Source: JADFSZ01 sp022560555 [NCBI: PVC group bacterium]
GTDB taxonomy: Bacteria > GCA-001730085 > JADFSZ01
Direction of reading: 5' to 3'
DNA: 8,198 nt
Assembly (NCBI GenBank): GCA_022560555.1
Contig: JADFSZ010000077.1
Span: 1-8,198, forward strand
Shown here: positions 1,247 through 7,527 of the stretch, in pieces
How the letters are laid out: each line of letters starts with the position of its first letter
Numbering within the stretch: position 1 is the stretch's first letter
Notes under the pieces: model-generated
The model's database searches: none
What the model saw: the letters and a program-made list of their open reading frames with translations, nothing else
Told to the model about the DNA's origin: nothing
Made by a program: the position numbers and the translations under genes

Positions 1247-1250
1247 ATGA
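1017..1250 (+). CDS. Doubtful small leader ORF overlapping the aminotransferase start
   Basis: A 77-codon frame opens with GTG at 1017 (or ATG at 1023, preceded by GGAAG at 1008-1012). Its TGA at 1248-1250 overlaps the downstream ATG at 1247-1249 as ATGA, an arrangement often seen in translational coupling. The N-terminal half has one hydrophobic stretch (about 10-27) and the rest is mixed. I recognise no family, and the composition is not clearly that of a real protein. It may be chance in an AT-rich leader. Confidence 0.18.
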   Translation: MIMIKNLPRVFVIWYVNFIVLFLLNLCPIRAVRFPSIKDYECLQTEPLTLKLIFQNIAWIINRQPLRNNSLPKQASL

Positions 1251-2392
1251 ACATTCCCTCATCAAAGGCATCTCTGGTCGGAAAGGAGTTAAAAAACATC
1301 AAAAGTGTTTTGACCTCCGGGAAATTGTCAGCCGGATTCTATACAGCCCGATGCACCCGACTCCTGGAAAAACTACACAACGCCAAAAAGATTTTTCTCA
1401 CAACTTCCGGAACGCATGCCTTGGAAATGGCGTCCCACCTTGTAGGATTGGAACCGGGAGATGAGGTAGTTCTTCCGGCTTTCACGTTTGTGTCGACGGC
1501 CAATGTCTTTGCCACGCGTTTAATCCGACCTGTGTTTGTGGATATTAGGCCGGATACGCTGAATATTGATGAACGCATCATTGAACGAGCTCTCTCAAGC
1601 CGGACCAAGGCGATTGTTCCGGTCCATTACGCCGGTGTCGGAGCTGAAATGGATGCCATCCGCAGGATCGCGCAAAAACACCGGCTCTATGTCATCGAAG
1701 ACGCTGCGCAGGGCTGGAACGCGACCTACAAGAACAAATTTTTAGGAACACTGGGGGATTTAGGATTTTACAGTTTTAATCACGATAAAAATTTCACATG
1801 CGGCCAAGGCGGAGCCCTTGTGATCAACAACAAGAAATTTTTTACGCGCTCTGAAATCGTGATCGATAACGGAACAAACCGGGCACAATTCCTTCGAGGC
1901 GAAGTAGATCATTATGAGTGGATCGATATCGGTAGCCGTTATCAGATCTCAGAGATTCTCGCGGCCTTCCTCTATGGTCAGCTCGAGAAACATCAACAGA
2001 TTACAGAGAAGCGCAAAAAACTGTACGATTACTATTACAAAAACCTCGTGCCACTAGCCAAAAAAGAGTGTTTACGCCTGCCCGTGATTCCGCGATCATG
2101 TAAATCCAATAAACATATTTTCTACGTGCTGATGGAAAACAACAAATCGCGCGAAGCGCTCCGAAAAGACCTCAATCAGCACGGCATCCAGGCAACCTTC
2201 CACTTTGTTTCTCTTCATTCCTCACCCATGGGGCGTAAACTGGGATACCGTCCGGGGGACTTCCCCATCACGGAATCCGTCTGCGATACGCTTCTCCGCC
2301 TTCCGATGTATTATACGCTAACGAACAAACTTCAAGACCACGTTATTGACAGAATTTATCGATACTTCGATGAGAAACGCCCCCGGAATTAA
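1247..2392 (+). CDS. wecE: dTDP-4-amino-4,6-dideoxygalactose transaminase (WecE/RffA-like, DegT/DnrJ/EryC1/StrS family)
   Basis: This is predicted to be a cytosolic PLP enzyme that moves an amino group from glutamate to C4 of dTDP-4-keto-6-deoxy-D-glucose. Its 381 residues match the usual family length, and the whole chain follows E. coli WecE as I recall it. The N-terminal SGKLSAG (24-30), TSGTHALEMA (53-62), GDEVVLPAFTFVSTAN (71-86) and VDIRPDTLNIDE (98-109) all fit. VHYAG (126-130), EDAAQG (151-156; Asp152 contacts the pyridine nitrogen) and SFNHDKN (176-182; Lys181 the Schiff-base lysine) follow. NGTNRAQFLRGEVDHYEW is the WecE-type substrate-binding stretch. The start at 1247 begins the family's N-terminal pattern, though the ribosome site is weak. 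Its stop overlaps that of the opposing oxygenase-like gene. The closely related viosamine or perosamine enzymes (VioA, Per) are alternatives, so the exact sugar is inferred. Confidence 0.9.
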   Translation: MNIPSSKASLVGKELKNIKSVLTSGKLSAGFYTARCTRLLEKLHNAKKIFLTTSGTHALEMASHLVGLEPGDEVVLPAFTFVSTANVFATRLIRPVFVDIRPDTLNIDERIIERALSSRTKAIVPVHYAGVGAEMDAIRRIAQKHRLYVIEDAAQGWNATYKNKFLGTLGDLGFYSFNHDKNFTCGQGGALVINNKKFFTRSEIVIDNGTNRAQFLRGEVDHYEWIDIGSRYQISEILAAFLYGQLEKHQQITEKRKKLYDYYYKNLVPLAKKECLRLPVIPRSCKSNKHIFYVLMENNKSREALRKDLNQHGIQATFHFVSLHSSPMGRKLGYRPGDFPITESVCDTLLRLPMYYTLTNKLQDHVIDRIYRYFDEKRPRN

Positions 2393-3051
2393 GGTTTGCG
2401 CTGTATTGTATACCCAAAGCTGAATCGATTTGTCTGGGAGTACACAGCATGCCAGAATGGCTTCTCGGGGCTAATCAGAAACAAGCGAAAATTCCATATC
2501 TGATCCATTGAGGTCACAATTCGACCATTATCCGGATCACGATAGCGGAAAAACGATTTTCCGGCTTCTTGGGCATAATTGACGTATAACCGCCAACCGG
2601 GCTTTCTTAAATTTGTATGCCAGCCCATGTATCCCCCGGGAGGATACCAAAAATGTCCGCTCATCTGTATGAGAAGTTTTTCCGGCTCTTCAAAAATGTG
2701 TCCTAAACGCTCACAAATCAGCTTGTCTGCCCGTTGTCTAAGATCAAGTACGGACGCATCCAAAACGGTACCATCCAGATTTTTTGTATGAAACACCATA
2801 CAGTTAGATAAATTCTGTTCAGTCCGAATGTCACTAATATCTTTTCCGGACCGAAGGATTTCCTCAAGGGCCTCGGGAGATACGGACTTTATGGCATTGT
2901 CATCCGTTCGAAAGTCATCTTTCCACTTAGCCTCACCGGCTTTCTTCTGTGCTTCAACACAAGTTAGAATAACATCTTTCAAAACGGAATCTTTTTCCCA
3001 ACCATTGATTTCATGAAAAATCACCTGAGAATCAAAGCTTATTCGCATCAT
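2389..3051 (-). CDS. 2OG-Fe(II) oxygenase-fold protein with an altered metal motif (HTN)
   Basis: This 220-residue protein is the third gene of the operon. Its C-terminal half has the layout of a prolyl-hydroxylase-like double-stranded beta-helix: FWYPPGGYMGWHTN (134-147), WRLYVNYAQE (153-162), KSFFRYRDP (165-173), WNFRLF (186-191), then WHAVYSQTNRFSFGY (200-214). His145 and His201 fit the two iron-binding histidines, and Arg209 with Ser211 fits the 2-oxoglutarate carboxylate site. The residue two after His145, normally Asp or Glu, is Asn147. The N-terminal half (1-125) is polar with no motif I recognise. The protein may be an active oxygenase with an unusual ligand, a non-oxygenase or an inactive relative. 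The start ATG overlaps the upstream stop as ATGA, with a GAAGG-type ribosome site nearby; the second codon is also ATG. Confidence 0.78.
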   Translation of the reverse strand: MMRISFDSQVIFHEINGWEKDSVLKDVILTCVEAQKKAGEAKWKDDFRTDDNAIKSVSPEALEEILRSGKDISDIRTEQNLSNCMVFHTKNLDGTVLDASVLDLRQRADKLICERLGHIFEEPEKLLIQMSGHFWYPPGGYMGWHTNLRKPGWRLYVNYAQEAGKSFFRYRDPDNGRIVTSMDQIWNFRLFLISPEKPFWHAVYSQTNRFSFGYTIQRKP

Positions 3052-3755
3052 GGGACAGCCTTCTTATTTGTCAAATTAAAATTCTTTTTAATGCTAGCCG
3101 GGACGCCGACGGCCAAAACATAATCCGCAAGATCCTGAATAACAACGGCACCGGCCCCGATTTTCACGTGTTTACCGATTTTGATCCGGTCAATCACCGT
3201 TGACGTTATTCCCAAAAATGTACTTTCTCCTATTTCGGAGCAGCCGGCGATACTCACGACCGGACCCACATAACAATGAGAACCAATGACAACGTCATGA
3301 GCAATGTATGATTTTGGCCCTACGTAGATATTATCACCTAATCTGACGTTGGCACAAATCGTACAGTTCATTAAAACGATGCATCCTTCCCCAACTGTCA
3401 CGGTCGAATCGATGTAAGAATCCGGATGGATGAATGTTGTTACCGGAATGTCATGTTTTTTCATTTGCAGAAACACATTTTTTCGAAATTCAATGTGCGC
3501 ATACCCTACCGCATTAAGGACGGAATCAAACTGTCCATTTTTGTATAACAAGGGGACATCCTTGAGAGGGCCCAGGAGAGAACGATGGTATTTGATTAAA
3601 CCCGCAGGCTCAAAATCATCAAACATCCCTACAACTTGTCCCTGCCCTGTTTCTTCGATATAGGGTATCATTTGCTTGGCAAAGAACTGACTCCCGATTA
3701 TAGCGATTCGCGGTCGGGATTTGGTTTTAGAATTATTTTTAGATATGCTTTTCAT
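3048..3755 (-). CDS. NeuD/PglD-like sugar O/N-acyltransferase (left-handed beta-helix)
   Basis: This 235-residue protein is likely to transfer an acetyl group from acetyl-CoA to the amino group of a nucleotide-linked amino sugar. An N-terminal Rossmann-like part (RIAIIGSQFFAKQM at 16-29, GMFDD at 43-47) binds the nucleotide sugar in PglD. From about residue 110 there are hexapeptide repeats (VTVGEGCIV, VRLGDNIYVG, VVIGSHCYVG, IKIGKHVKIGAGAVV) ending in AVGVPAS. His153-Asp154 in YIAHDVVIG aligns with the PglD His-Glu catalytic pair. The frame stays open to a TTG at 3842, but that would overlap the GT2 gene by about 100 bases; ATG at 3755 leaves a 17-base overlap and the normal family start. 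No strong ribosome site is visible, suggesting coupling to the GT2 gene. Next to a WecE-like aminotransferase, N-acetylation of a 4-amino-4,6-dideoxyhexose is the best guess. Confidence 0.85.
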   Translation of the reverse strand: MKSISKNNSKTKSRPRIAIIGSQFFAKQMIPYIEETGQGQVVGMFDDFEPAGLIKYHRSLLGPLKDVPLLYKNGQFDSVLNAVGYAHIEFRKNVFLQMKKHDIPVTTFIHPDSYIDSTVTVGEGCIVLMNCTICANVRLGDNIYVGPKSYIAHDVVIGSHCYVGPVVSIAGCSEIGESTFLGITSTVIDRIKIGKHVKIGAGAVVIQDLADYVLAVGVPASIKKNFNLTNKKAVP

Positions 3756-4668
3756 AAATTTGATATTGTGTTTTTTTAAAAATGCATTCAAGAATTTGGC
3801 GAAGATACTCTCCGAAGATATTGAAAGCGAAAGCAACGCCAAGAATCCACAGCGTCATCGAGACGCCTTTGAGAAGTTGTCCCGGCAAGATCTCAGGCAT
3901 AAAAGTCCATGTCACAAATCCCCAAAGAGCGATGAGTCCACCGGTTAACACCAGTCCCAATCCCCATAGCGCTGCCTGAATAGACAGGGGGCTATCAGCA
4001 ATGAGACCCGCAATAAAAAACCGTGTGAGTTTTCGAAACGTATAATAAGATTGTCCTTCATAACGGATTTTGTGCTGAATGATCAAAGAGCCCCACTTCT
4101 CTGTGGTTTTAGCAAGAAGAATGTTAATATTGGGATTAGGCCTCTCGAATCGCAGAATCTTATCAACGATGCTTTTTCGGATGACGCGAAAACTGCTCAC
4201 CTTCTGCCGGGAATGAACACGAAATATCATACGAAAAAGTTTGTTATACACAAAACTCCCAATTTTACGAAAATGAGAGTAAAGTTTTTTTTGCGGAATT
4301 CCGTAAACGACATCCGCGCCGGACTCATTAAGTTCCCTGATAAGACGGGGAATATCTCCCGGGGAGTATTGCAAATCGTCATCTAGCGTGATAATATTTT
4401 GGCCTGAGGCATGCCGAAATCCGCACATGAGGGCATTGTGCTGTCCATAATTTTGATCAAGTCGTATGATTTTGACGTTTGCGTCTGAAGCATGTAGTTG
4501 CAAGAGCACATCCCAGCTGGCCCCGTCACCGCTGTCATCAACAAAAATGAGTTCATAGTCCGCATTGATCTCTCGAAAGACCTGACGAACTTGCTTGGCC
4601 AATTCATGCAAAACCGACCGCGTTCGATAAACGGGAACGACAATGGAGCTTAAGGTCTGGGACATCAC
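3739..4668 (-). CDS. Polyprenyl-phosphate glycosyltransferase, GT2 family (ArnC/GtrB/DPM1-like)
   Basis: This 309-residue protein should move a sugar from a nucleotide donor to undecaprenyl phosphate on the cytoplasmic face of the inner membrane. The GT-A domain shows SIVVPVYR (8-15), FVDDSGDGS-like (42-51, Asp44/45 for the nucleotide) and ITLDDDLQYSP (93-103), the metal-binding acidic motif of this family. NYGQHNALMCGF (73-84) is also typical. Two hydrophobic helices at about 229-257 and 267-286 end in FGEYLRQI, like the C-terminal GEYL element of ArnC/GtrB. It is the first gene of a three-gene operon, and its end overlaps the acyltransferase start by 17 bases. The first codon is GTG (4668) and the second ATG (4665); either may be used, with GGGA 6 to 9 bases upstream. 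The transferred sugar is not known; the aminosugar made nearby is a reasonable candidate. Confidence 0.88.
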   Translation of the reverse strand: MMSQTLSSIVVPVYRTRSVLHELAKQVRQVFREINADYELIFVDDSGDGASWDVLLQLHASDANVKIIRLDQNYGQHNALMCGFRHASGQNIITLDDDLQYSPGDIPRLIRELNESGADVVYGIPQKKLYSHFRKIGSFVYNKLFRMIFRVHSRQKVSSFRVIRKSIVDKILRFERPNPNINILLAKTTEKWGSLIIQHKIRYEGQSYYTFRKLTRFFIAGLIADSPLSIQAALWGLGLVLTGGLIALWGFVTWTFMPEILPGQLLKGVSMTLWILGVAFAFNIFGEYLRQILECIFKKTQYQIYEKHI

Positions 4669-4991: not shown

Positions 4992-4994
4992 TTG
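4981..4994 (+). promoter_or_regulatory. Strong ribosome binding site that fixes a TTG start
   Basis: CGGAGG (4981-4986) lies 5 bases before TTG at 4992-4994. The next codons give Lys-Arg-Lys and then a hydrophobic helix, as expected for a membrane protein N-terminus. No in-frame ATG lies between the site and the TTG, so TTG is the best start. Confidence 0.7.
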
Positions 4995-5627
4995 AAAAGG
5001 AAATTTTTAACTACTTGTTTTCATATTTTTATCTGCTTACTGTTCACCTTATCGATACTTGCCATTGTTTACTCAATCGGCCGGGCTACAGGAAAACCCT
5101 TGTCCGGTTTGACCATGGATCCCGCCGAAACATTTCACGCCGTCCCTTATGTCGGAATTCTTTCTTATCTTGGAATAATGTTATGGGCTGCAACATTCGG
5201 CGTTTGCCTGATAGGGGGCTTGATATTACGTCAGCAGCATTGCCATCCCGGAAGATTTTTGTTGGCTACAGCAATGTTTAGTCTCCTGCTAACCCTTGAT
5301 GACGCGTTGTTATTTCACGAACAAATTTTTCCTCATTATCTGCATATTCCTCAGCCGGTGGTCATGGTGAGCTATGTTGTAATTATGACAGCATACCTCC
5401 TTGCCTTTTTCCGATTAATCCTGACGACAGAATACATTTTATTTGTTTTGGCCCTCATATCTTTAGGCATATCGGCAGGGATGGATCAGCTTCTTGGGCC
5501 CAGTGATCTGGAAAACGTTATTGAGGACTGTTTTAAATTTACTGGAATTGTTTTCTGGTTTAGCTACTTTTTAAGTACAGCTAATGAAATGATCCAAAAA
5601 AACCCATCCCTCAATCACATGACATAA
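4992..5627 (+). CDS. Polytopic membrane protein with buried acidic/His residues, unknown function
   Basis: This 211-residue protein starts with Met(TTG)-Lys-Arg-Lys and has about six hydrophobic segments, roughly 8-29, 52-79, 88-107, 121-144, 147-164 and 181-198. Several charged residues fall inside or at the edge of helices: LDD at 102-104, HE at 109-110, Asp165, ED at 178-179 and Lys182, followed by an aromatic TGIVFWFSYF (184-193). This spread of Asp/His/Glu recalls membrane hydrolases such as the CREST (alkaline-ceramidase-like) group, but the spacing does not clearly match. I do not recognise a named family. It is not in an operon. It converges on the DUF2079 gene with only 28 bases between stops, and diverges from the glycan operon, so a role in the same envelope pathway is possible but unproven. 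Confidence 0.8.
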   Translation: MKRKFLTTCFHIFICLLFTLSILAIVYSIGRATGKPLSGLTMDPAETFHAVPYVGILSYLGIMLWAATFGVCLIGGLILRQQHCHPGRFLLATAMFSLLLTLDDALLFHEQIFPHYLHIPQPVVMVSYVVIMTAYLLAFFRLILTTEYILFVLALISLGISAGMDQLLGPSDLENVIEDCFKFTGIVFWFSYFLSTANEMIQKNPSLNHMT

Positions 5628-5655: not shown

Positions 5656-7527
5656 TCAATCCCGAATTTGCTCGAGCATTTCTTTCGCTCCCTGATGCTT
5701 CGGTTCAATGGCAAGAACATTTTTCCAGTACTTGCGGGCCGTTTTAACATTCCCGGTGCGAAATGCCGCTAAGCCCAGATTTAAATGAGTCGGCACATTA
5801 AGGGGATCCTCTTGTAAAATCAATTGCCATTGCAAAACAACACTCGACATATCATTCAGATACATGTAAAATTCCGCCAATTTATTGCGAAATATTAAAT
5901 ATTGTTTCGGATAATCCGCAACCAATTTCTGATAGGCTATGATTTGAGCTAATAGTATTTTCTGCCGCAAATCATCCCAGGCCACTTTAGGATACAGACC
6001 TTCAGAACTTATGTTCCCTTTACTGGCAAAAAAGAAAATGTTTTCTTTTTCATGAACCAAATTATAATTCCGCTGGATGAATTTTAATAAATCCGGATAC
6101 CGGATAGGGACGTCCACGCATTCTGCATCGAGCAATAAATATTTAGGTTCGATGTTATTATATTTCTTCATAGCAAAAACTCCCTCGCTACGATGCGTAA
6201 AATGAGGTTCGAGGCTTCTAGAAACTAACAAAGAGTCCTCAGGGGGGACCAACTCTTCAATCTCTTTTATCGCTTTGAGACGCGTACCATGAAATTCTTT
6301 CGTCTGCAACAAGGATTTATCACGGAAACTGTAATCAAACGTTTCGGAATAGTAAAACATAACTGCCGTAACCGCAAGACTCGCCAATACAATCCCTCTT
6401 AACATTTGTCGCGATTTCCTAGGAGGAAGCCATCCCCCGAGTTTTCGAAGCCCCATAATATATGCGTAAAAAATGACCGGGATCATGGTGGCCGTATAAT
6501 GCTTGATTAAACTGAACTGTCCCGTAAAATCAGCCAAAGTGTTTTGAGCAATTAAGGGAAGAATCGCCACGATCAGCGGCCAATGAAGCAGGGGGATTAA
6601 GAAATGCGGTCCAAATAAATACATGATGTATTTCATTTTCTGGGGGTTTCCTGCAACAAACCCAAACGTATCAACGGGGTGAAGGAAAGTGTTTTTGACA
6701 ATTGAGCTCAACGATCCTCCTAACGTAGAGTAACGATTAAGGAGAACAACATCGTTGATAAAATCAATTCCTCCGAGATACTTAATCATAACAACTTTTG
6801 TGATTACGATAAACCAGGATAGCCCCAAAAGAATACACAAAATTCCCTTTTGCCAATCTTTCCTGTATAGCAGAAAATATAACCCCAGTAGCGCCACCAA
6901 AATGCCATGGTCTTCTTTGCAAAGAAGAATGCATGCCAGACACAGATAGAATCCTTTTGTCGATTTTAATTCATAAAATAAAAATAGTAATACCAAAAAT
7001 ATGATCGCTGTCACTCCATAATGAAAACCATTGACACAAAATCCTGATGTCGCCGGAAAAATGAGGTAACATATCCCTACGAGACATGCCAGAACTTCAT
7101 CATGAAGAATTCTGCGCGCTAAGTAATATAAGGGAATGGCTGCCAATGCGGCAAAAAGGGTCTGTAATATAAACAGGGTGTGTATACTTGTAAATATATA
7201 GTAAAACGCGAGGTATACAACTGCGATGGCTTCAAAATGTTGTGCAAACATGTTTTGATCAGCCGATTGGGTCCAAAATCCACGCCCCTGGAGAAAGTGC
7301 CAGAGCGACCCTTCATAAACGGCAGCGTCTTCACAATCAACATAATGCGCATACTTGTAAATAGGAACAGCCGAGAAGATAATAACAAATATAACAATCG
7401 CGCCACATAGTAAAAGTAACGGCTTGCTAAAAATCTTTCTGGAAAATAAAATGCCTGGAGTTGAGGCTTCAGACCTTGAAACAGGAGATAACCGATCCGG
7501 TTTTCTCCTATTTCTATTAGCTCTCAT
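5656..7527 (-). CDS. DUF2079 (GT-C-like) membrane protein with C-terminal TPR repeats
   Basis: This 623-residue protein begins with a basic, Ser-rich cytoplasmic tail (1-34). Around ten hydrophobic helices follow between about 36 and 395. DUF2079 landmarks are visible: CEDAAVYEGSLWHFLQGRG (65-83; the acidic pair is typical of the first outer loop), MFAQHFEAI (93-101), GFHYGV (167-172), CKEDHGI (203-209) and HYTATMIPVIFYA (343-355). The segment at about 400-502 is the family's soluble domain (SLLVSRSLEPHFTHR, PKYLLLDAE, IFFFAS). From about 515 to 620 there are TPR-like helices, clearest at THLNLGLAAFRTGNVKTARK (580-599). DUF2079 proteins are predicted lipid-linked-sugar-dependent glycosyltransferases like ArnT or PMT. 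The acceptor is unknown, and the TPR part may bind a protein partner. AAAGGG precedes the ATG, and two promoters lie just upstream. Confidence 0.87.
   Translation of the reverse strand: MRANRNRRKPDRLSPVSRSEASTPGILFSRKIFSKPLLLLCGAIVIFVIIFSAVPIYKYAHYVDCEDAAVYEGSLWHFLQGRGFWTQSADQNMFAQHFEAIAVVYLAFYYIFTSIHTLFILQTLFAALAAIPLYYLARRILHDEVLACLVGICYLIFPATSGFCVNGFHYGVTAIIFLVLLFLFYELKSTKGFYLCLACILLCKEDHGILVALLGLYFLLYRKDWQKGILCILLGLSWFIVITKVVMIKYLGGIDFINDVVLLNRYSTLGGSLSSIVKNTFLHPVDTFGFVAGNPQKMKYIMYLFGPHFLIPLLHWPLIVAILPLIAQNTLADFTGQFSLIKHYTATMIPVIFYAYIMGLRKLGGWLPPRKSRQMLRGIVLASLAVTAVMFYYSETFDYSFRDKSLLQTKEFHGTRLKAIKEIEELVPPEDSLLVSRSLEPHFTHRSEGVFAMKKYNNIEPKYLLLDAECVDVPIRYPDLLKFIQRNYNLVHEKENIFFFASKGNISSEGLYPKVAWDDLRQKILLAQIIAYQKLVADYPKQYLIFRNKLAEFYMYLNDMSSVVLQWQLILQEDPLNVPTHLNLGLAAFRTGNVKTARKYWKNVLAIEPKHQGAKEMLEQIRD

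What the first reader, a model, noticed from the sequence alone, without database searches (positions are those of the whole stretch)
2389..3051. Oxygenase-fold protein with His-Thr-Asn where HxD is expected
The residues at His145, His201, Arg209 and Ser211 fit a 2OG-Fe(II) enzyme, but the third iron ligand position is Asn147. In known non-heme halogenases this carboxylate is replaced by Ala or Gly to open a halide site; Asn is different again. The surrounding residues look intact and conserved in style, which argues against simple decay. From memory, related phage and bacterial sequences may share the HTN, which would make it a subfamily trait. In a sugar operon it could modify a glycan or its acyl group, or sense 2OG or iron.
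Basis: partly seen in the sequence, partly recalled or inferred. Interest (0 to 1): 0.62.

Follow-up and report, generated by a model that had tools for sequence, protein, structure and literature searches.

The report
Oxygenase-fold family with fixed asparagine
A gene in a bacterial sugar operon encodes a protein with the fold of iron- and 2-oxoglutarate-dependent oxygenases that has an asparagine where its relatives of known function usually hold iron with an acid, and many environmental virus sequences share that asparagine, so it looks like a fixed trait of an unnamed family and not an error or decay.

Summary
ORF 2389-3051 (minus strand, 220 aa) has His145-Thr-Asn147, His201, Arg209 and Ser211. 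An AlphaFold2 model (pLDDT 84, pTM 0.81) matches PHD2 and prolyl 4-hydroxylases (best Z 12.3). Asn is not an error: in a viral scan seeded downstream of the motif, 79 of 79 readable loci (80 read of 189 relatives) have Asn; the exact flank with Asp gave 0 viral hits, with Asn at least 120. In 115 non-redundant domains, many Asn-seeded, Asn147 is 115/115. The family has no convincing Pfam or PHROGs match, occurs in 2 of 50,697 GenBank phage records but at least 591 IMG/VR stretches, and is rare in cells. Three related cellular copies lie in glycan clusters; viral copies are often beside genes that look like tail fibres. Best reading: an active 2OG/Fe(II) enzyme with a carboxylate-free site (2-His, perhaps 2-His-1-Asn), oxidising a sugar or its N-acyl group here. 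Iron, 2OG, turnover and substrate are untested; halogenase, sensor, pseudoenzyme and replaced-ligand readings stay open.

The parts
2389..3051 (-). HTN-family 2OG-oxygenase-fold protein, 220 aa (P0001); its ATG overlaps the stop of the upstream acetyltransferase gene (ATGATG)
2617..2619 (-). His145, first predicted metal ligand, end of strand 140-145
   Evidence: 115/115
2611..2613 (-). Asn147, in the place of the HxD carboxylate
   Evidence: 79/79 readable seed-blind loci, 115/115 (partly Asn-seeded)
2449..2451 (-). His201, distal predicted metal ligand, start of strand 201-205
   Evidence: 114/115
2419..2427 (-). Arg209-x-Ser211, predicted 2OG C5-carboxylate binding
   Evidence: R 114/115, S or T 114/115
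2644..2646 (-). Tyr136, 9 residues before His145, the same spacing as in the Pseudomonas putida P4H chain 4iw3_A
   Evidence: Y 112/114
3048..3842 (-). NeuD/PglD/VioB-type hexapeptide sugar acetyltransferase (ORF from TTG; an internal ATG at about 3755 is a likelier start)
   Evidence: TIGR03570 E 2e-46, 158.1 bits, just under its cut-off of 160.8; Hexapep over its cut-off
3739..4668 (-). family 2 glycosyltransferase, first gene of the run; nearest NCBIfam models are ArnC and PgfS, both far under their cut-offs
1247..2392 (+). WecE-type dTDP-4-amino-4,6-dideoxyhexose transaminase (over two NCBIfam cut-offs), convergent; its stop overlaps the stop of the HTN gene

Best explanation
It is a member of an unnamed family of 2OG/Fe(II)-oxygenase-fold proteins whose predicted metal site has two histidines and a fixed asparagine instead of the HxD/E...H triad. 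Most likely it is an active 2OG-dependent oxygenase with a carboxylate-free iron site (Asn147 binding iron through its side-chain oxygen, or holding a water ligand somewhat as in AspH), with 2OG held by Arg209 and Ser211. In this genome it most likely oxidises the sugar or N-acyl group of the N-acyl-4-amino-4,6-dideoxyhexose that the neighbouring WecE-type transaminase and NeuD-type acetyltransferase would make, before or during transfer by the GT2. In viruses it is often attached to modules that look like tail fibres. Shown by computation: fold, constancy of HxN, family breadth, gene neighbourhood. Inferred: iron and 2OG binding, activity, substrate.
For: Model with H145 at the end of one strand and H201 and R209 at the starts of two others, as in 2OG oxygenases; Foldseek to 3obz, PHD2, P4H, AlkB; PHD2 Z 12.3 over 168 residues; cyanophage 2OG-Fe(II) oxygenases among the BFVD hits. 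H145, N147, H201, R209 and S/T211 are kept in 114 or 115 of 115 domains (rows were picked by WH and a downstream H...R pattern, which 245 of 246 proteins passed), which argues for a site under selection. The only near-universal acidic column is D183 (114/115), in the turn before strand 186-193, which by topology lies away from the metal; E162 is acidic in 83% of 106. Two-His 2OG enzymes are real: AspH (passages of PMC8252765 and PMC13168262). Sugar-gene neighbours in the window, in L164 (PglD/NeuD-like gene directly upstream, GT2 downstream) and in L176 (polysaccharide pyruvyl transferase).
Against: No Fe, 2OG or activity data. No convincing match to a 2OG-oxygenase profile or PDB chain. Comparison with one P4H gave nothing (P 0.54); with 19 P4H-like proteins the local alignment has the right register but P is only 0.055 and 0.061, and the global mode failed (P 0.97). 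Foldseek TM-scores to solved structures are about 0.25-0.43 by query length. Asp-to-Asn changes at this ligand are generally damaging in ordinary 2OG oxygenases (recalled). The NeuD-type neighbours of the window and L164 are 30% alike over 109 residues against 55% for the HTN proteins, so the pair was not simply inherited together. L165 has no glycan-synthesis gene in its 5.9 kb (by inspection).
Confidence: 0.5

Rival explanations
1. A non-catalytic (pseudo)oxygenase: the fold and the 2OG pocket are kept for binding (sensor, chaperone or structural role), and Asn is fixed because iron chemistry has been lost.
For: Loss of the carboxylate ligand; in 37 of 81 viral loci a small conserved protein of unknown function lies just upstream, where a chaperone-like role is conceivable; no substrate known.
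Against: Both His, Arg, Ser/Thr and the Tyr nine residues before His are kept in nearly every member read, across very divergent branches; a dead enzyme would be expected to drift at some of these.
Confidence: 0.22
2. An enzyme with non-hydroxylating chemistry, e.g. halogenation or azidation, or an anionic substrate group completing the iron sphere because Asn is neutral.
For: The carboxylate is missing as in 2OG halogenases (passage of PMC8252765); a neutral third ligand leaves charge to be balanced by an anion (inference).
Against: Known halogenases have Ala or Gly there (recalled); Asn fills the pocket. AspH lacks the carboxylate yet does not halogenate its EGF-domain substrates (PMC13168262 passages).
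Confidence: 0.1
3. An ordinary 2OG hydroxylase in which another acidic side chain replaces Asp147 as ligand.
For: D183 is Asp/Glu in 114 of 115 and E162 in 83% of 106.
Against: D183 is in a turn at the far end of the strand that leads to H201 (and known topology); E162 is not universal.
Confidence: 0.1
4. Sequencing error or decaying HxD gene.
For: None found.
Against: 79 of 79 readable seed-blind relatives have Asn; 0 Asp hits for the exact flank in viral contigs.
Confidence: 0.01

Closest known systems
Prolyl 4-hydroxylase / HIF prolyl hydroxylase (PHD2) branch of 2OG-Fe(II) oxygenases (PF13640 type)
   Same: Barrel fold, Tyr-to-His spacing of 9 as in 4iw3_A, His / distal His / Arg-x-Ser register in a weak profile alignment
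   Different: HxN for HxD; no profile match; KSFFRY motif where P4Hs have GG-x-L; 6-11% identity in the structural alignments listed
Aspartate/asparagine beta-hydroxylase AspH (PF05118 type; accession recalled)
   Same: Lacks the carboxylate ligand; two His and an Arg/Ser 2OG site (passages of PMC8252765, PMC13168262)
   Different: In AspH a water (W1), supported by D721, takes the place; no AspH-family profile match here
2OG-dependent halogenases (SyrB2, WelO5, BesD type; recalled)
   Same: Carboxylate ligand replaced
   Different: They carry Ala or Gly (recalled), which opens a halide site; here Asn is fixed
Annotated 2OG-Fe(II) oxygenases of marine phages (phrog_61 and cyanophage proteins)
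   Same: Viral, similar fold; 2OG-Fe(II) oxygenases are reported marine auxiliary genes (passages of PMC11561400)
   Different: HTN proteins have no convincing PHROG match; one member, P0002, touches phrog_61 at E 0.0048

Membership tests
2OG/Fe(II) oxygenase superfamily | double-stranded beta-helix fold | tested here: met
   AF2 model pLDDT 84.2, pTM 0.81; Foldseek PDB list from E 2.9e-4 is mostly 2OG enzymes, with cupin-like 2fqp and 3lag and an unrelated Golgi-domain protein (7rrm) among the 50 shown; PHD2 Z 12.3, rmsd 3.6, 168 residues
2OG/Fe(II) oxygenase superfamily | HxD/E...H metal triad | tested here: not met
   HxN in 79/79 readable seed-blind loci and 115/115 domains. Exceptions to the triad exist among true members (AspH, halogenases)
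2OG/Fe(II) oxygenase superfamily | Arg/Lys (RxS) that binds the 2OG C5 carboxylate | tested here: met
   by sequence only: R209 114/115, S or T at 211 114/115
2OG/Fe(II) oxygenase superfamily | Fe(II) binding and 2OG turnover | not testable with these tools
   needs purified protein
PF13640 prolyl 4-hydroxylase-like | match to the Pfam profile | tested here: not met
   not among the matches of P0001 at E 1 nor among the 15 families matched by any of 62 members at E 0.1
AspH / PF05118 | profile match | tested here: not met
   not among the matches
AspH / PF05118 | carboxylate-free two-His iron site | tested here: inconclusive
   no universal acid that topology would put at the metal, but no coordinates or metal data
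2OG halogenases | Ala or Gly at the third-ligand position (recalled) | tested here: not met
   Asn in every readable member
2OG halogenases | halide binding and C-H halogenation | not testable with these tools
   needs assay
cupins | cupin barrel without a 2OG site | tested here: inconclusive
   2fqp and 3lag appear in Foldseek but over about 96-103 columns; the VIA rows shown are 2OG enzymes spanning the whole model

The most novel reading that the evidence does not exclude
A large, mostly viral class of 2OG oxygenases in which a neutral asparagine is a genuine, evolutionarily fixed third iron ligand (2-His-1-Asn). The more cationic iron site would favour an anionic ligand from the substrate or medium, giving chemistry unlike ordinary hydroxylation, used by viruses on tail fibres and recruited by a few bacteria for surface glycans.
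Probability: 0.25. Interest if true: 0.8.

Novelty: new variant of a known kind. Interest (0 to 1): 0.6.

Why it matters
The 2-His-1-carboxylate triad is used to recognise and name 2OG oxygenases. A big family that has fixed Asn there has no convincing match in Pfam or PHROGs, and asks directly whether a neutral amide can serve in such a site. It also points to a gene that is common in uncultured virus sequences but was found in only two of the GenBank phage records searched, and to a possible new decoration step in bacterial amino-sugar glycans.

Tried and rejected
Viral scan with P0001 alone found no relative; alignment-seeded scans were needed. PDB search by sequence or profile gave nothing meaningful. 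Plasmid collection: no match. Own genome one copy, 58 other genomes none. Profile searches in cells, counts including the genome used as centre: phylum of the planctomycete 1 of 392, itself only; class of the Lysobacterales MAG 2 of 369, itself plus G533; order of G533 1 of 20, itself only. So rare and scattered in cells.

Collagen-like tail fibres as the general substrate: GXY runs of 7 or more in only 9 of 81 loci, some directly upstream; interesting, not general. Co-inheritance of the NeuD-HTN pair: rejected, 30% against 55% identity. MAFFT placed one P4H wrongly among HTN proteins; profile comparison replaced it: nothing with one P4H (P 0.54), right register but P 0.055 and 0.061 with 19 P4H-like proteins, which I had picked by an HxD...GG...H...R pattern; global mode P 0.97; reversed-column control another alignment at P 0.27. 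The structure of the second HTN branch was too poor to use (pLDDT 57.6). The BFVD list also holds unrelated proteins. Papers: searches for HXN, 2-His-1-Asn and Asn ligands showed no natural case (listings), in an open-licence library only; the listing gave one 'hxn' in PMC7923460 but a passage search found none in its main text; D101N of PMC13336071 is one of a set of loop variants, not an iron ligand.

L108 has no motif (truncated). L225 is frameshifted after the motif but was counted in the 115 and left out. Many of the 115 domains came from an Asn-containing seed; only the loci came from seeds without that column, and the profile searches include it. loci overlap the contigs, and L084 is on the same contig as L046. 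Of the 120 stretches, 77 were read. Neighbour clusters are single-linkage BLAST groups and may mix families; the tested member of the 44-locus cluster matches only PHROGs of unknown function, so 'tail-fibre-like' is by inspection.

Full report
What is there. It is the last gene of a minus-strand run: GT2 (3739-4668), NeuD/PglD/VioB-type acetyltransferase (3048-3842; TIGR03570 at 158.1 bits, just under its cut-off of 160.8) and HTN gene, the last two overlapping at ATGATG. A WecE-type transaminase (1247-2392, plus strand, over two NCBIfam cut-offs) converges on it with overlapping stops. The window is a whole contig (C46, 8198 bases) of a 1.66 Mb draft genome, 91.5% complete; among 58 other genomes returned as relatives one is of the same phylum.

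Family. P0001 has no convincing Pfam, NCBIfam, PHROG or PDB sequence match. tblastn finds two of 50,697 phage records, LR756511 (HSN) and Phage C48C1 (HTN); queries from other members find the same two or one of them. These 80 and L084 (same contig as L046) all carry HTN, but the seed contains the motif.

Test of the Asn without that bias. A second scan used only residues after 149. Of 189 relatives the best 80 were read: 75 HTN by pattern plus L126 (AWHTN), three HNN, and L108, which begins after the motif. So 79 of 79 readable have Asn and none Asp or Glu. The same design over a collection of 84,980 species genomes gave 24 pattern matches, five of them relatives: HTN in L164, L165, L167, L168 and HHN in L166. 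These scans cover one flank; a distant Asp-bearing cousin with a changed flank would escape.

Depth. Of 77 Asn-scan stretches read, 49 fit the WH...R-x-S pattern; of the other 28, 26 are a second branch ending in KRLTLGY, one (L282) is another divergent form and one (L225) is frameshifted. The still more distant L174 has HNN. So the middle residue varies (T, S, N, H) and the third does not, in what was read. Over 115 non-redundant domains H145 and N147 are 115/115, H201 and R209 114/115, S or T at 211 114/115, Y136 112/114 (rows picked by WH and a downstream H...R pattern, 245 of 246 passing; many rows Asn-seeded). The only near-universal acid is D183 (114/115); E162 is acidic in 83% of 106.

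Fold. The model has eight strands, with H145 at the end of 140-145, H201 at the start of 201-205 and R209 at the start of 209-218, which is where 2OG oxygenases carry HxD, the distal His and the 2OG Arg (established knowledge). Foldseek ranks phyhd1, PHD2, PolD and P4H first, then AlkB and others, with some cupin-like chains, at low TM-scores; VIA-align puts PHD2 at Z 12.3, a Dictyostelium PHD at 12.2 and bacterial P4H at 11.9 and 11.4; in BFVD the best hit is an uncharacterised phage protein (E 2e-12, TM 0.68), followed by many annotated 2OG-Fe(II) oxygenases among unnamed and some unrelated proteins. Comparison with 19 P4H-like proteins aligns H-H, N-D, H-H, R-R in register but only at P 0.055, and 0.061 with the 114-domain alignment; the global mode failed, one P4H alone gave nothing, and a reversed control gave P 0.27. 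D183 precedes strand 186-193, whose far end leads to H201, so it should lie away from the metal; this is inference from topology, since no coordinates could be read.

Neighbours. Cellular: L164 (Planctomycetaceae MAG) has a PglD/NeuD-like acetyltransferase directly upstream and a GT2 downstream; L176 (G533, same class as the Lysobacterales MAG) sits among a polysaccharide pyruvyl transferase and, by inspection, AsnB-like, CapK-like, glycosyltransferase and flippase-like genes; L166 lies after WecA-like and ManC-like genes (by inspection); L165 has no glycan-synthesis gene in its 5.9 kb (by inspection); L167 and L168 look like phage contigs. P0001 is 55% identical to L164 and 46% to L176 over nearly full length, and the three group together in a quick tree (SH-aLRT 86, below the tool's 95 mark, few columns). 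The NeuD-type proteins are only 30% alike, so the repeated pairing is suggestive, from two cases. Viral: of 81 loci, 44 share a cluster of ORFs upstream that look like tail fibres by inspection (its tested member matches only PHROGs of unknown function), 37 a small protein just upstream, 22 a small IDGRHRL-type protein downstream, 9 a cluster whose tested member is a carbamoyltransferase. Two other tested neighbours match tail-fibre PHROGs (L024:5364-5702 and L017:5769-8888). Collagen-like runs occur in 9 of 81 loci. Of the viral relatives nearest to the window, L004, L006 and L007 lie beside a primase-like gene and L010 elsewhere, not beside a fibre-like gene (by inspection).

How it would work. 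Shown: fold, HxN constancy, kept Arg/Ser/Tyr. Inferred: Fe(II) held by H145 and H201; the third place taken by the Asn147 amide oxygen or by a water that Asn147 orients; 2OG bound by R209/S211; O2 activation and oxidation of a substrate C-H. AspH shows that a two-His site works: passages of PMC8252765 and PMC13168262 describe a water in the carboxylate place, active enzyme, and no halogenation of its EGF-domain substrates. In the window the likely substrate is the N-acyl-4-amino-4,6-dideoxy sugar or its acyl chain, because transaminase, acetyltransferase and GT2 are adjacent; sugar-nucleotide epimerase-family genes exist elsewhere in the genome (15 matches, two adjacent on C34). This step is a guess with no direct test.

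Known or new. Marine viral 2OG-Fe(II) oxygenases are known as auxiliary genes (PMC11561400, passages), but that count went by PHROG categories, in which I found no HTN family. I saw no report of a natural HxN 2OG oxygenase in the listings of four searches of the open library; subscription papers were not searchable. I therefore call it a new variant of a known kind: it folds like a 2OG oxygenase and probably works like one, but fails the defining triad and is not filed under P4H, AspH or halogenases.

Noticed in passing
L003 (Phage C48C1) 5671-6345, and record OQ984149.1 152346-153023: One phage carries two divergent members: P0002 (HTN), next to a NifU-like Fe-S assembly gene, and a second place matched by L174 and L220 whose motif was not read.
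   Followed up: partly
L220, L213, L218, L228 and others: A second, highly conserved viral HTN branch ending in KRLTLGY; in GenBank phages its full-length match is Phage C48C1 only.
   Followed up: partly
L014, L017, L022, L054, L059, L061, L066, L080, L081: ORFs with collagen-like GXY runs within about 5 kb of the HTN gene, in several directly upstream; a possible substrate for a P4H-like fold.
   Followed up: partly
L071 and L076, 3269-4738: NodU/TobZ-type carbamoyltransferase gene overlapping the start of the viral HTN gene.
   Followed up: partly
L167 10201-10548 and similar: Small protein with an IDGRHRL motif directly downstream of the HTN gene, cluster present in 22 of 81 viral loci; PHROGs of unknown function only.
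   Followed up: no
window 5656-7527 (-): DUF2079 membrane protein with C-terminal TPR-like matches.
   Followed up: no
window 4992-5627 (+): 211-aa probable membrane protein without any Pfam match, divergent from the GT2 gene.
   Followed up: no
G062 (Rhodobacteraceae Water_Bin34) C86, C110, C115: Contigs that look like phage are binned with a bacterial MAG and carry three HxN proteins.
   Followed up: partly
L225: HTN gene whose frame shifts just after the motif (assembly error or broken copy).
   Followed up: no
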